A stretch of DNA of 10,378 nt from Candidatus Bathyarchaeota archaeon (GTDB lineage: Archaea; Thermoproteota; Bathyarchaeia; 40CM-2-53-6): contig VBBQ01000008.1 in NCBI GenBank assembly GCA_005888755.1, positions 952 through 11,329 on the forward strand. The letters run 5' to 3'. Both the position numbers and the translations under genes were made by a program. Of the stretch, positions 7,367-10,378 are shown in pieces. Position 1 is the stretch's first letter. Each line of letters opens with the position of its first letter. The notes beneath the pieces were generated by a model. It did no database searches, was not told the DNA's origin, and saw nothing but the letters and a program-made list of their open reading frames with translations.

Positions 7367-7426
7367 ATGCGTAACCCGTTTCGACGTAAATCCAAGAAGA
7401 CAGAAGAAGCACCAAAACAGGCCTAA
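7367..7426 (+). CDS. Possible 19-residue basic microprotein
   Basis: ATG at 7367 opens a complete frame of 19 codons ending in TAA: MRNPFRRKSKKTEEAPKQA. It has a properly spaced GGTGA ribosome-binding site and is followed within 20 bases by a hairpin and then a T-tract, so it has the full anatomy of a small transcription unit. The peptide is strongly basic in its first half, with an acidic-polar tail; such composition is seen in RNA- or ribosome-associated tails and also in C-terminal remnants. It stands alone, 219 bases after the membrane protein stop. It could be chance, or a remnant of a larger gene. No homologue is recognised. Confidence 0.35.
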   Translation: MRNPFRRKSKKTEEAPKQA

Positions 7427-7444: not shown

Positions 7445-7494
7445 TCGGGGAAACTATCATTCCCCGAGATCAGTTCCTAAAAGATCCCTTTTTT
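7445..7494 (+). terminator. Hairpin and T-tract after the microORF
   Basis: TCGGGGAA (7445-7452) and TTCCCCGA (7460-7467) form a perfect 8-base stem with the loop ACTATCA. A CCC followed by six T residues lies at 7486-7494. It resembles the terminator at 3451-3486 on the other strand (C-run then T6). It would end transcription from the microORF or from 6308-7147 readthrough. Confidence 0.5.
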
Positions 7495-7656
7495 GAAATC
7501 AGTTGTTCGACGTCGCGTTTTAGAGCCGGATTCTAGGTCAGATACTCGGAAACAGGTTTCTGACCGCTTTTTGATACACTCTTAAGAACCATTTCTGGAA
7601 ACAGAGACTGAAATTTCCGGGCCCCCCGGGGGGCCTACTCGAGTCTCGCGCCGCCC
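7490..7656. repeat. Duplicated noncoding element, copy 1
   Basis: This element matches 9917-10055. In plus-strand order it holds degenerate units related to GAAACCNGTTT (for example GAAATCAGTTG at 7495-7505 and GGAAACAGGTTTC around 7549-7561), TCTGGAAAC at 7594-7602, AATTTCCGG at 7612-7620, a perfect 16-base GC palindrome at 7620-7635, and a block of 27 bases at 7630-7656 that is identical in copy 2 (it contains CTACTCGAGTCTCGCG). The two conserved 9-base blocks are 18 bases apart in both copies. On the minus strand the element starts 5 bases after the stop of the two-helix gene 7662-7970, so it is a 3'-flanking or 3'-UTR element of that gene. Confidence 0.8.
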
Positions 7657-7661
7657 CACAT

Positions 7662-7970
7662 TTAGCCCAAGTTCTTCTTCTTGAGCGATTCGAGTATCTT
7701 CTCTTCCTCTGTTCGTTTTCCAGCGTATACCGCTATGGTGTACCCCAGCAGTGCTCCCGCGTACAGTCCCGCTAGCGTTCCGTTCAGGAGGAAGCCTAAC
7801 GGTCCAATGTTTTTCCCAGCCCAGGTTTGAAGGTAGAGATTGTTCTCGTATTCGAGAGAAACCCAGACGAGCAATCCGAGGATTGACAACGATTCCGTCC
7901 AGACCAGCCAGCGCGTCCGCTTCAACAACTGTTCCTGCTTCAACCGATCCATATCCAGTCTATCGCCCAT
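7662..7970 (-). CDS. Two-helix membrane protein, EYxxNxYLQ family
   Basis: This 102-residue protein has a charged cytoplasmic N-terminus (MGDRLDMDRLKQEQLLKR), a first helix (about 21-39), a short conserved loop SLEYENNLYLQTWAGKNIGP, a second helix (about 55-82, starting GFLLNGTLAGLYAG) and a basic-acidic tail KRTEEEKILESLKKK that is likely a cytoplasmic amphipathic or coiled helix. I recognise no named family. It is clearly paralogous to the gene at the right edge: 22 of 33 residues are identical by my alignment from EY to YAG. A decayed relative lies at 353-547. The start is ATG at 7970; a TTATAA box about 30 bases upstream implies a leaderless transcript. It stands alone on its strand. The duplicated noncoding element begins 5 bases after its stop. 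Its job is unknown; the conserved loop suggests a binding or oligomer interface outside the membrane. Confidence 0.8.
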   Translation of the reverse strand: MGDRLDMDRLKQEQLLKRTRWLVWTESLSILGLLVWVSLEYENNLYLQTWAGKNIGPLGFLLNGTLAGLYAGALLGYTIAVYAGKRTEEEKILESLKKKNLG

Positions 7971-7996
7971 AGCCCCCCAAGCCCGGTCTACCCCAG

Positions 7997-8002
7997 TTAT
8001 AA
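7997..8002 (-). promoter_or_regulatory. TATA box for two-helix membrane gene
   Basis: TTATAA is centred about 30 bases before the ATG at 7970. With the usual archaeal spacing the transcript would start within a few bases of the ATG, that is, leaderless. No Shine-Dalgarno is present, which agrees. Confidence 0.55.
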
Positions 8003-8121
8003 CGCTGAAACCCGAGACCCAAAACCTCTTCTCGAGAAGAACCTACTACCTGGCTAACCTGTCATGGTGAAAGGCCAACCCCTGAACTAACATCTCTGAA
8101 CAATACCCAGTTCACAGCAAT

Positions 8122-8146
8122 GGGCTCTCGCACCTTGTGCGAGCCC
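8122..8146 (+). other. Strong hairpin before a small ORF
   Basis: GGGCT (8122-8126) and CGCAC (8129-8133) pair with GTGCGAGCCC (8137-8146), giving a 10-pair stem with a 2-base bulge and a CTT loop. Four T residues follow at 8150-8153. It sits 12 bases before a GGAGGTGG sequence. It could be a leader structure controlling that ORF, or a terminator for plus-strand transcription. No plus-strand gene is seen just upstream, so the first is preferred. Confidence 0.45.
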
Positions 8147-8177
8147 CGTGTTTTGGTTGGAGGTGGAAAAACGAAGT

Positions 8178-8351
8178 TTGGAAGGAATCCGGAACCTTCT
8201 CGTTATGGCCGCGATCACCATGGTAGTGTTTCTTCCAACGGCTGTCTATCTGGGCACCATTACCGCAGCCGCCTTGTGTCTCCCAACTGTTGCAATATCG
8301 CAGGTGGATGCCCATGGAAGGCATAGCCCAAAGCTCCCCGTTCCTCCCTAG
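8178..8351 (+). CDS. Possible small two-helix membrane protein
   Basis: TTG at 8178 opens a 57-codon frame ending in TAG at 8351. The product is mostly hydrophobic, with NLLVMAAITMVVFLPTAVYL and GTITAAALCLPTVAIS forming one or two membrane helices, then a polar tail DAHGRHSPKLPVPP. The main support is GGAGGTGG at 8159-8166, the best match to the 16S anti-Shine-Dalgarno in the window, 11 bases before this TTG. The same frame is open from GTG at 8148, and an internal ATG lies at 8205. It is bracketed by a strong leader hairpin (8122-8146) and two hairpins after the stop (8391-8437). It is unrelated to the EYxxNxYLQ proteins, whose motif it lacks. It may be a real small gene or a chance open frame; no homologue is recognised. 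Confidence 0.4.
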   Translation: MEGIRNLLVMAAITMVVFLPTAVYLGTITAAALCLPTVAISQVDAHGRHSPKLPVPP

Positions 8352-8390
8352 TTCCAACTGGCGACCTCGCTTCGCGCAATCTCAAGGCAT

Positions 8391-8440
8391 CCCCCGTAGT
8401 TTGATCGGGGGAATCTAGTATAGGGACTTTGGTCCCTTTA
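8391..8440 (+). terminator. Tandem hairpins, possible terminator
   Basis: CCCCCG (8391-8396) pairs with CGGGGG (8406-8411), and AGGGAC (8422-8427) pairs with GTCCCT (8432-8437) around TTTG, followed by TTT. The pair lies 40-90 bases after the small membrane ORF. The T-run is short for an archaeal terminator. The second hairpin resembles a tRNA-Gln anticodon arm, but no tRNA can be folded (see rejected items). Confidence 0.35.
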
Positions 8441-8521
8441 GCCATGCAGATATCCCGAGTTCTCGTACAGTGACGAACAAGGGACCGAGCCCGTTGGATC
8501 GATGGTTTCTCGATGGCTGTG

Positions 8522-8555
8522 ATTAATACCAGTCTCAGGGTCCTGCAGCAAGGAG
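8522..8555 (+). promoter_or_regulatory. Promoter and ribosome-binding site of VOC gene
   Basis: ATTAATA at 8522-8528 is a TATA-like element about 40 bases before the TTG start, and AGGAG at 8551-8555 lies 9 bases before that TTG. The Shine-Dalgarno supports TTG 8565 as the start. Confidence 0.4.
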
Positions 8556-8564
8556 TTCGTCAAC

Positions 8565-8993
8565 TTGTCCCCTAGGTCTCCAACCTCCGCAGATGCTGCC
8601 AATAGCCCTCTTGGAGTTTTGCGTTTTCTCTACATGGGAAGCTCGGATGTCGGGAAGGACCTCGATTACTACACGAAGGTCCTTGGGGGAAAGAAGGTTT
8701 GGGATTTTACCAGCATGGGCACTCGTGTAGCCGCGGTCCAAGTGTCTAGTGGACCCCTGCTCCTTCTTGCCGGCCACCGGCGTGCCCCCTCTGTTCTGCC
8801 CGTGTTCGAGGTTGAGAACCTGAAGGTTTCGGTAAGGGAGTTCAAGAGTCATGGCTGGCAACCTGACGGTGAAGAGTTCGAGATTCCCAACGGGCCCTGC
8901 TATTTATTCAAGGATCCCAGCGGGAACCAGATGGCCATATTCCAGGACGTCCGCCCCAGACTGCTGGAGAGCGGTTTTCACGAGACTGGCTAA
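8565..8993 (+). CDS. VOC-fold (glyoxalase/bleomycin-resistance-like) protein
   Basis: The 142-residue protein contains two beta-alpha-beta-beta-beta halves of the vicinal oxygen chelate fold: residues 18-70 (VLRFLYMGSSDVGKDLDYYTKVLGG...RVAAVQV...LLLLAG) and 75-128 (SVLPVFEVENLKVSVREFKS ... CYLFKDPSGNQMAIFQ). The signature DYYTKVLG and FKDPSGNQ are clear. Classical members bind a metal through His and Glu on the first strand of each half and the strand ending each half. Here the first strand has no His (LRFLYM) and the last has Ala/Ile where GNxxEL would supply Glu (NQMAIFQ). A metal-dependent glyoxalase is therefore unlikely; a ligand-binding or drug-sequestering role is an inference. TTG at 8565 is chosen because AGGAG lies 9 bases upstream; this adds a polar 16-residue N-terminus before the fold. 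It appears monocistronic. Confidence 0.85.
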   Translation: MSPRSPTSADAANSPLGVLRFLYMGSSDVGKDLDYYTKVLGGKKVWDFTSMGTRVAAVQVSSGPLLLLAGHRRAPSVLPVFEVENLKVSVREFKSHGWQPDGEEFEIPNGPCYLFKDPSGNQMAIFQDVRPRLLESGFHETG

Positions 8994-9074
8994 CTATCAT
9001 TGGTCCAGGACCCATCGCTCTCGGCGCATCTAGGGATACCCCCAGATTTCTCGCTCGCTGGATAGGTGCGCCTA

Positions 9075-9083
9075 TTCATATAG
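9075..9083 (+). promoter_or_regulatory. TATA box for gene 9113-9532
   Basis: TTCATATAG is centred about 33 bases before the ATG at 9113, which predicts a transcript with a leader of only about 5-10 bases. No clear Shine-Dalgarno precedes the ATG. Confidence 0.5.
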
Positions 9084-9112
9084 TGGCTTCGATTGCCTCT
9101 ACCTGAGTAAAA

Positions 9113-9532
9113 ATGCAATCTCAACAACAAAGCAAAGGCGAGGTAATCGCCGAGCTGCGCGGTAAGACCGACAGCTTCAGCATCAAAGACATCAGCTCTA
9201 GCGGCGTCAAGATGGAGAACAACGACGTCGGCCAGATCACAGGCAAGTACCAGGGTAGCTTCATGGAGACAACGAGTATTCACATGAAGACTGACGGTAC
9301 GAGCGAGTGGGAAGGCAAAGGCATCCAGATGGTCGGCAAGGACATGGTCGTGGTCACAGGCCACGGCAAGGGTCACAGAGGCCCGGACGGAAACGTCATG
9401 TTCGAAGGCGAGCAGAAGTACATGACACAGTCGCCGAACCTATCCTGGCTTAACACCACCAAGGCATGGATCGAGGGCGCAGCCAATCAGGCTGACCAGA
9501 CATTCACCGCCAAGGTCTACGCCAAGAAATAG
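9113..9532 (+). CDS. Small beta-rich cytoplasmic protein, function unknown
   Basis: The 139-residue protein has no signal peptide or membrane helix. After a polar start (MQSQQQSKGEVIAELRGK) it shows alternating strands: DSFSIKDISSSGVKMENNDV, GKYQGSFMETTSIHMKTDG, TSEWEGKGIQMVGKDMVVVT, GHGKGHRGPDGNVMFEGEQ and a final FTAKVYAKK. The pattern GxYxGxxMETxxxxxxxDGxxxWxGKG followed by a G-rich turn and 'SP.LSWLN' is, from memory, like a set of archaeal hypothetical proteins that look like small beta barrels (lipocalin or allene-oxide-cyclase-like). That match is inference only. The codon choice looks more GC-ending than the neighbouring genes. ATG 9113 is the first start after the stop and has a TATA box at the right spacing. 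It is followed by a T6 tract. Substrate or partner is unknown. Confidence 0.8.
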   Translation: MQSQQQSKGEVIAELRGKTDSFSIKDISSSGVKMENNDVGQITGKYQGSFMETTSIHMKTDGTSEWEGKGIQMVGKDMVVVTGHGKGHRGPDGNVMFEGEQKYMTQSPNLSWLNTTKAWIEGAANQADQTFTAKVYAKK

Positions 9533-9555
9533 AGCAACGATAGCTTAACATCCAA

Positions 9556-9568
9556 TCTTCTCTTTTTT
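9556..9568 (+). terminator. T-rich terminator after gene 9113-9532
   Basis: TCTTCTCTTTTTT lies 24-36 bases after the stop codon, ending in six T residues. It is a typical archaeal pyrimidine terminator without a stem. A second T7 run at 9667-9673 could act as backup. Confidence 0.55.
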
Positions 9569-9573
9569 CGCGA

Positions 9574-9916
9574 ACCCAAGGCGCGACCACTACGCCCGGT
9601 AGGAATGCTCTTCCGAAGACGATCGATTTCTCACACGATCCCTCCACTGGTCTTTTTCCGTAACCATTTTTTTCTAGATGTTCTTTTCAGCTAACTAATC
9701 TACGACCTCCCCGGGGGACTGTTTTTCCCGCGCCCCGCCCTGCGTGAAACGACCTGAATCCCACGTTCACGGGTCTCGCCCCAGCCATCCTTGCTTCGTG
9801 GCCGTGTCCGTCGCGTGCACGGAATTGGCTCCAACCATTCTTGATTCATGATCCGAAGATCACACTGGGACCCACGAGACAGTTCATCCAGGGAAAATCG
9901 GCTTGGAGGATGATCT
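9574..9916. other. Noncoding stretch with degenerate repeats
   Basis: No gene is supported. It contains a T7 run (9667-9673), a near-palindrome TCCCCGGGGGA (9708-9718) followed by five T residues, an imperfect inverted repeat around GCGTGAAACG (9742) and CGTTCACG (9764-9771), and a degenerate direct repeat of about 23 bases at 9781 and 9831, exactly 50 bases apart (CCAGCCATCCTTGCTTC versus CCAACCATTCTTGATTC). Confidence 0.4.
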
Positions 9917-10055
9917 ATTGAAACCGGTTATTGAAACCCGTTTTTGAAACCACATTCTGAAACCAGTTTTTGAGGTCGTTTTTTGGAACGGATTCTGGAA
10001 ACGATATTGCGAATTTCCGGGGGGCCCTGGGGCCTACTCGAGTCTCGCGCCGCCC
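9917..10055. repeat. Duplicated noncoding element, copy 2, with 13-base array
   Basis: The element begins with tandem units of about 13 bases: ATTGAAACCGGTT (9917), ATTGAAACCCGTTT (9930), TTGAAACCACATT (9944), CTGAAACCAGTTT (9957), then more degenerate units to about 9995. Most units hold the half-palindrome AAACNNGTTT. TCTGGAAAC (9994-10002) and AATTTCCGG (10012-10020) follow with the same 18-base offset as in copy 1. A GC-rich stretch and then the 27 bases at 10029-10055, identical to 7630-7656, end the element. On the minus strand it starts 24 bases after the stop of the two-helix gene 10080-10378. The GC palindrome of copy 1 is imperfect here (GGCCCTGGGGCC). Confidence 0.8.
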
Positions 10056-10079
10056 GCCATGAAACGGCGATTCTTCACT

Positions 10080-10378
10080 CTACCGTGCCTCTGGTGCAAC
10101 AGGAATCTCCTCCCGTCTCCTCACCTTTCCCGCAACAACCGGCACTGGCCGGCTAAGATGGACCGCTATCAACACGCCAGCATAGAACGCCGCGAGCGTC
10201 CCGTTCAGCAAGAACCCGAAACCGCCTAGGTGCATGCCCGCCCAGGCCTGCAAGTACTCGTTGTGATCGTACTCCTCAGCCACCACGACCAATAGGAGAA
10301 GGATAACTATCGACTGGATTCCGGCGAGGACCCTAGTCTGCCTCGCCGCCTTCTTCGCCCGAAGCCCGGCGATACTGA
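10080..10378 (-). CDS. Two-helix membrane protein, EYxxNxYLQ family (5' end outside window)
   Basis: The frame stays open to the right edge, so the start lies outside; 98 full codons are visible. From the edge the protein reads SIAGLRAKKAARQTR (basic), a first helix VLAGIQSIVILLLLVVVAE, the loop EYDHNEYLQAWAGMHLGG, a second helix FGFLLNGTLAAFYAGVLIAV and a tail SRPVPVVAGKVRRREE ending in PEAR. It is the paralogue of 7662-7970: 22 of 33 residues identical from EY to YAG. The shared GFLLNGTLA stretch differs at 5 of 27 bases, with no residue change, so the copies are old. A TTG at 10292 is too late to be the start because it would remove half of helix one. The same noncoding element follows both genes. 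Function unknown. Confidence 0.8.
   Translation of the reverse strand, partial: SIAGLRAKKAARQTRVLAGIQSIVILLLLVVVAEEYDHNEYLQAWAGMHLGGFGFLLNGTLAAFYAGVLIAVHLSRPVPVVAGKVRRREEIPVAPEAR

What the first reader, a model, noticed from the sequence alone, without database searches (positions are those of the whole stretch)
7490..10378. A duplicated module: two-helix gene plus an identical noncoding 3' element
Two paralogous minus-strand membrane genes each have the same element just after the stop codon (7490-7656 and 9917-10055). Its last 27 bases are identical, whereas an equally long conserved coding stretch (GFLLNGTLA) differs at 5 bases, all without changing a residue. Noncoding DNA more conserved than synonymous sites implies function, gene conversion or recent movement. 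The element could be a 3'-UTR structure acting on this gene family, a recombination site, or the trailing end of an RNA. No known archaeal element of this form comes to mind.
Basis: partly seen in the sequence, partly recalled or inferred. Interest (0 to 1): 0.75.

Follow-up and report, generated by a model that had tools for sequence, protein, structure and literature searches.

The report
Interchangeable intergenic repeat elements in soil archaea
The shared piece of DNA after two membrane genes belongs to a large family of two-part intergenic repeats in a group of uncultured soil archaea; they sit at the same gene borders in many species, beside unrelated genes, and at several borders one version has been exchanged for another during evolution.

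Summary
The 27-nt block starts a roughly 200-nt element: a near-invariant head (GCGCGAGACTYGAGTAGGCC), a C-run/G-run core, and an array of degenerate 13-nt units (GTTTCAAGAACCG). The host genome has 9 copies and its family about 105, beside unrelated genes (TFB, PhoU, MtnA, glmS, SHMT, a tRNA, RNase P RNA). A second family with the same 5' edge but another core and a ~17-nt array (6-23 copies per genome in 11 genomes) also lies in the window (9649-9803, minus strand). Type 1 and type 2 occupy the same orthologous gene borders in different species. Upstream of glmS all 11 genomes of one clade carry an element, and its type changed at least three times on the glmS tree. Stem covariation, RNA folding excess, strand-biased T-runs, terminal inverted repeats, Y1 transposases and Rho were tested and not found. 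Best reading: a BOX/BIME-like interspersed mosaic DNA repeat with an exchangeable 3' module, kept at fixed gene borders, probably acting as DNA. What it does is unproven. No description of it was found in the searches made.

The parts
10080..10376 (-). 2TM protein gene, paralogue b (cut by the window edge)
   Evidence: ORF; no Pfam or NCBIfam match; hydropathy peaks near residues 12-38 and 52-82
10011..10055 (-). Type-1 element copy B: head plus C-run/G-run core (27 nt identical to copy A at 10029-10055)
   Evidence: further copies
9912..10010 (-). Type-1 array of copy B: seven or so 13-nt units GTTTCARRAACNG
   Evidence: sequence; periodicity over all copies
9743..9803 (-). Type-2 element, upstream domain (CACGAAGCAAGG ... 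GTGAACGTGGGATTCAGGTCGTTTCACG)
9690..9742 (-). Type-2 element, head CAGGGCGGGGCGCGGGAAAA and core ACAGTCCCCCGGGGAGGTC
   Evidence: 19 copies in the own genome at up to 2 mismatches
9649..9697 (-). Type-2 array (GTTA...GAAAA units, spacing about 17 nt)
7662..7970 (-). 2TM protein gene, paralogue a
   Evidence: ORF; orthologues in 8 genus genomes at 48-79% identity
7610..7656 (-). Type-1 element copy A: head plus core and GGAAATTTC
7460..7609 (-). Type-1 array of copy A, more degenerate than copy B; far edge approximate
   Evidence: sequence

Best explanation
The block is one copy of an interspersed mosaic DNA repeat of one clade of soil Bathyarchaeia. Each element has a shared 5' edge (about TTTCRYGRAGGGCGSGGCGCGRGA) and an exchangeable 3' module: type 1 (CTYGAGTAGGCCCC-N-GGGGCC-GAAAATTC plus an array of 13-nt units) or type 2 (AAAATCGACCACCCC-GGGGGTC plus an array of about 17-nt units, or in some copies a T-run). 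Shown: dispersal beside unrelated genes, fixed orthologous positions, occupancy of the glmS site in 11 of 11 genomes, and exchange of type at the same site. Inferred: the modules are exchanged by recombination between shared 5' edges (ectopic, or between tandem elements such as the type 1 - type 2 pair in this window), arrays grow and shrink by whole units, and the element is retained because it works as a DNA-level border element next to transcription units, with the array as a row of binding sites for an unknown protein.
For: About 105 type-1 copies in 17 of 21 family genomes, reversed-pattern control 0. Type 2: 6-23 copies per genome in 11 genomes, control at most 1. Orthologous positions shared by up to 9 species. 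Type 1 or type 2 at the same border with both flanks conserved: 3' of MtnA, 793-aa gene, glmS; head-side flank conserved at the 103-aa gene. glmS tree: type 2 in G000+G014, in G007+G001 and in G013, each nested among type-1 genomes with support 0.986-1.0, so at least 3 changes. Array strand-specific and periodic: TTTCA 4.1 per 150 nt against 0.2 upstream and 0.07 for the reverse complement. TTTCA positions change 0.041 against 0.118 elsewhere between orthologous arrays.
Against: The selection test is weak: other frequent 5-mers are as slow as TTTCA (rank 10 of 72). Within the sister pair G000/G014 the array is not more conserved than the flank beyond it (106/735 against 106/692 sites), though both are below the 0.28 of fourfold sites in glmS. 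A decayed copy exists (G014, L206: head kept, G-run and array gone). No binding protein is identified. TFB and glmS orthologues outside the clade lack the element, so it is not needed by those genes in general.
Confidence: 0.5

Rival explanations
1. Non-functional or selfish interspersed repeats (MITE/REP-like fossils) that spread once in an ancestor and persist at their insertion sites by inertia, with later ectopic gene conversion between copies.
For: Dispersed, intergenic, orientation at about 14 sites after a gene end and about 13 upstream of a divergent gene (hand count); BOX and RUP repeats of pneumococcus are read in this way (PMC3049150); a decayed copy exists.
Against: No Y1 transposase in 13 genus genomes; no inverted copy of the head at the far end (best match 12.7 of 24 against 12.4 for shuffled heads); 11 of 11 occupancy at glmS despite at least 3 changes of type.
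Confidence: 0.25
2. Transcription terminator or 3'-UTR RNA element: hairpin followed by U-rich arrays or a U-tract, ending transcripts that come from the head side (mRNA, tRNA, RNase P RNA, or divergent promoter transcripts).
For: Where a gene ends on the head side, the head begins 8-33 nt after the stop in most cases, about 17 nt after a tRNA, 20-odd nt after RNase P RNA in G009. In G009 and G016 and in some type-2 copies a run of 5-8 T follows the core. U-tracts direct archaeal termination (PMC8716108, abstract).
Against: Stem arms pair no better with each other than with arms of other copies (own -10.33, swapped -10.37 kcal/mol); folding z-scores -1.6 to +1.4 in 12 copies; T-runs of 5 or more are not biased to the head strand (43/106 against 53/106 on the other strand for type 1; 17/37 against 28/37 for type 2); about half the sites have no gene ending at the head; RNAalifold finds no consensus pair.
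Confidence: 0.2
3. 3' part of unrecognised small RNA genes, at least at the sites between divergent genes.
For: At the 103-aa site a conserved TATA-like CTTATAATT and about 100 largely conserved bases precede the head.
Against: No conserved promoter upstream of the heads as a set; only about 60 nt between the glmS start and the head; no Rfam match.
Confidence: 0.04
4. A 3' element specific to this two-helix gene family.
For: Both paralogues in the window and most 2TM genes in relatives have one.
Against: Most copies adjoin other genes; some 2TM genes have none (L210, L212).
Confidence: 0.01

Closest known systems
BOX elements of Streptococcus pneumoniae (boxA - boxB array - boxC; PMC3049150)
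   Same: Intergenic, dispersed, modular: conserved first module, then a tandem array of variable copy number; other module families in related species (boxE/boxF in S. suis).
   Different: No sequence relation seen; units are 13 or 17 nt and degenerate; a conserved far-end module was seen only in a minority of type-1 copies; positions shared across species and not just strains; archaeal host.
GTAG-tagged REP sequences / BIMEs (PMC3733652, PMC2817692)
   Same: Type 1 has GTAG directly before a GC-rich palindromic core; extragenic, dispersed.
   Different: Type 2 lacks GTAG; long array attached; no stem covariation; no RAYT; that survey reports GTAG repeats from bacterial phyla.
Archaeal U-tract / aCPSF1 (FttA) terminators (PMC8716108)
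   Same: Position after gene ends at part of the sites; T-runs in some variants.
   Different: No strand bias of T-runs, sites between divergent genes, long conserved head.
MITEs of prokaryotes (review PMC10969869)
   Same: Short, non-coding, dispersed.
   Different: No terminal inverted repeats found; target duplications not determinable; stable positions.

Membership tests
GTAG-tagged REP | GTAG tetranucleotide at the foot of a palindrome | tested here: met
   Type 1 only (AGTAGGCCCC..GGGGCC, over 90% of copies); type 2 does not have it
GTAG-tagged REP | Short (20-40 bp) unit whose stem is kept by paired changes | tested here: not met
   Element about 200 nt with array; no covariation
GTAG-tagged REP | Associated Y1 tyrosine transposase (RAYT) in the genome | tested here: not met
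   PF01797: 0 of 13 genus genomes, control positive in 5; genomes are incomplete
BOX-type mosaic repeat | Conserved 5' module followed by a variable tandem array | tested here: met
BOX-type mosaic repeat | Conserved 3' (boxC-like) module | tested here: inconclusive
   Tail like TTGCTTGTTTCCATTCTGTGA in a minority of copies: 26 of 106 within 6 errors against 9 in upstream control
BOX-type mosaic repeat | Sequence homology to boxA/B/C | not tested
   No BOX model was searched; resemblance is one of architecture
MITE | Terminal inverted repeats | tested here: not met
MITE | Target site duplication at an empty/filled pair | not testable with these tools
   No close empty site found: glmS site filled in all 11 clade members, outgroups too diverged
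Archaeal intrinsic / U-tract terminator | U-tract on the transcribed-RNA strand | tested here: not met
   T-runs not biased to the head strand; present in a minority of variants
Rho-dependent terminator (rut site, considered because units are 13 nt) | Rho protein in the genome | tested here: not met
   PF07497: 0 of 21 genomes, control positive in 9
Known structured RNA | Rfam match | tested here: not met
   none to the element itself
3' element of the 2TM gene family | Every copy follows a 2TM gene | tested here: not met

The most novel reading that the evidence does not exclude
A new kind of archaeal gene-border (insulator-like or chromosome-organising) element: a fixed set of some 30 intergenic addresses per genome, each needing an element but accepting either of two module types, whose degenerate arrays are multi-site platforms for dedicated DNA-binding proteins.
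Probability: 0.25. Interest if true: 0.8.

Novelty: new variant of a known kind. Interest (0 to 1): 0.56.

Why it matters
Interspersed mosaic repeats with head-plus-array design are known from bacteria. Here is a family in uncultured Bathyarchaeia in which two versions replace each other at the same addresses while the address stays filled. If the address is what is selected, these sites mark gene borders that need something, and they give a list of some 30 loci per genome to test for insulation, termination or chromosome organisation in a major archaeal lineage with no genetics.

Tried and rejected
Family-specific 3' element: rejected by the neighbours. REP/RAYT mobility: no Y1 transposase. 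Rho rut sites, suggested by the 13-nt spacing: no Rho. Array units as mini-hairpins (GGTT-TCAAG-AACC): no pairing excess at the expected positions. Structured RNA: RNAalifold gives no pair, swap test negative, folding z near 0, no Rfam hit. Promoter of its own: no TATA upstream as a set. Terminal inverted repeats: none. Purifying selection on TTTCA: significant at first, but other frequent 5-mers are similar, so kept only as weak support. Hits outside the family: one exact match in a Lentibacter genome (L067) has no core or array and is chance; no viral contig. A match in G002 (L079) also lacks core and array. ARAGORN with the tool's settings missed the intron-containing tRNAs; with introns allowed it found them.
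Full report
WHAT WAS CLAIMED AND WHAT IS THERE. Both numbers are exact. The element starts with GGGCGGCGCGAGACTCGAGTAGGCCCC (7630-7656 and 10029-10055), continues with a run of C, a run of G and G(G)AAATT(T/C)C, and then with an array of degenerate 13-nt units of the form GTTTCAAGAACCG. Over 94 copies the self-identity at lag 13 is 0.405 against 0.256 in shuffles (z 35), with shoulders at 12 and 14 and echoes at 26 and 39. TTTCA occurs 4.1 times per 150 nt of array against 0.2 upstream, and its reverse complement 0.07 times.

HOW MANY COPIES AND WHERE. The own genome (2.01 Mb, 48 contigs) has 9 copies by a 61-position sequence model; its genus and family together have about 105, with 7-12 in most of the better genomes. 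The pattern with up to 2 mismatches gives 0 hits when read backwards. Outside this family nothing was found: not in 40 genomes of the same order or class, not in viral contigs, and in genome contigs only soil Bathyarchaeota/Crenarchaeota MAGs plus one chance match in a bacterium. The neighbours are unrelated: TFB (9 species), an intron-containing tRNA (7), a PhoU-like regulator (6), an MtnA-like isomerase (5), the 2TM genes, glmS (6), a 793-aa gene (7), a 103-aa gene (5), a glyoxalase-like gene, SHMT and, in one species, RNase P RNA. Functional names other than those from Pfam or Rfam hits are my reading of the protein sequences. By hand count from these calls, about 14 sites have a gene or RNA ending at the head and about 13 have a divergent gene starting there, so there is no orientation rule relative to genes.

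A SECOND FAMILY, AND THE SWAP. While reading what follows other 2TM genes I found elements with the same 5' edge (TTTCRYGRAGGGCGGGGCGCGRGA) but another continuation: AAAATCGACCACCCCGGGGGTC, then an array with GTTA about every 17 nt and A-rich stretches, or in some copies GAGAAAAGCATGCTTATTTTT. This type 2 has 6-23 copies in each of 11 genomes of the genus (pattern control at most 1). One copy lies in the window, minus strand 9649-9803, in tandem with the type-1 copy after the gene at 10080. At many borders one type stands where a relative has the other. At MtnA both flanks align and only the element differs: type 1 in G010 and G013, type 2 in G007 and G006. The sister genomes G000 and G014 differ at the 103-aa site (type 1 against type 2 with T-run; head-side flank conserved, far side not alignable) and at the 793-aa site (type 2 against type 1, both flanks alignable). 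Further mixed sites are a border upstream of a divergent tRNA, the 123-aa site and the 380-aa site. Upstream of glmS all 11 genomes of one clade carry an element, 6 of type 1 and 5 of type 2, while 6 genomes outside the clade that could be read have none. On a tree of glmS, type 2 appears in G000+G014, in G007+G001 and in G013, each nested among type-1 genomes with high support, so at least three changes. TFB is followed by type 1 in all 9 clade members that could be read and by nothing of the kind in 7 genomes outside.

TESTS OF MECHANISM. RNA hairpin: the 5' arm of a copy pairs no better with its own 3' arm than with those of other copies (-10.33 against -10.37 kcal/mol, 60% of permutations at least as good); RNAalifold predicts no consensus pair; twelve copies fold no better than dinucleotide shuffles (z -1.6 to +1.4). 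Terminator: T-runs of 5 or more are not biased to the head strand, although a run of 7-8 T follows the core in G009 and G016 copies and T5-T6 in some type-2 copies. Mini-hairpins in the units: no pairing excess. Mobility: no Y1 transposase in 13 genus genomes with positive controls; no inverted repeat at the far end. Rho: absent. Selection: between the sister genomes G000 and G014 the core head differs less than fourfold sites of glmS (0.28), but arrays (106/735) and the DNA beyond them (106/692) are alike. In orthologous arrays TTTCA changes three times more slowly than the rest (0.041 against 0.118), but a control with all frequent 5-mers shows others that are as slow. Selection on the array motif is thus suggested, not shown.

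INTERPRETATION. The facts that need explaining are a fixed address, an interchangeable content, a shared 5' edge and a strand-specific array that keeps its motif while units come and go. A simple fossil repeat explains dispersal but not why the glmS address stays filled through at least three changes of type; however, if type changes arise by recombination between the shared 5' edges, for example within a tandem pair such as the one in this window, a filled address is the natural outcome and needs less selection than it seems. I therefore give about 0.5 to a mosaic repeat kept as a DNA-level border element, 0.25 to a passive mosaic repeat, 0.2 to a terminator or 3'-end element, and little to the rest. 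The description (mosaic repeat, dispersed, swapping) is much firmer than the function.

COMPARISON. The closest designs are BOX elements of pneumococcus (PMC3049150: boxA, variable boxB array, boxC) and BIME/REP sequences (PMC3733652). It is like BOX in design but no homology was tested or seen; type 1 shares the GTAG foot of REPs but fails the transposase and stem tests. Searches of open papers for intergenic hairpin repeats of Bathyarchaeota found none and related searches found nothing similar; subscription journals are largely not covered.

Noticed in passing
window 9649-9803 (-): Second repeat family in tandem with the reported element; it became part of the finding.
   Followed up: yes
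window 7367-7426 (+): A 19-codon ORF MRNPFRRKSKKTEEAPKQA just beyond the far end of array A; the same peptide is encoded, letter for letter, near the orthologous 2TM site in L102 (G007) and L135 (G017), so it may be a conserved small protein.
   Followed up: partly
L206 (G014), after the 2TM gene: Decayed element: head GCGCGGGACTCGAGTAGGCC kept, G-run and array missing; a natural deletion.
   Followed up: no
L114, L164, L165, L168, L097 (G009, G016): Type-1 head followed by GAAAAGATT...GAATTTTTTT(T) in place of, or before, the array: terminator-like variant in a sister clade, once after RNase P RNA.
   Followed up: partly
L236 (G003), after RNase P RNA: GCTCCCCGGGGGGGTCGAGAAATAGATAACAGAAAGAGA: a C-run/G-run core plus purine-rich array without the known heads; possibly a third family.
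   Followed up: no
L251, L270 upstream of the type-2 head: Additional upstream copies of TTTCACGAAGGNCGG, about 55-150 nt apart, suggesting a still longer composite form of type 2.
   Followed up: no
L082, L144, L145, L149, L151, L153, L157: An intron-containing tRNA directly followed by the element in seven species; ARAGORN assigns it different identities in different species, so its anticodon is unsure.
   Followed up: partly
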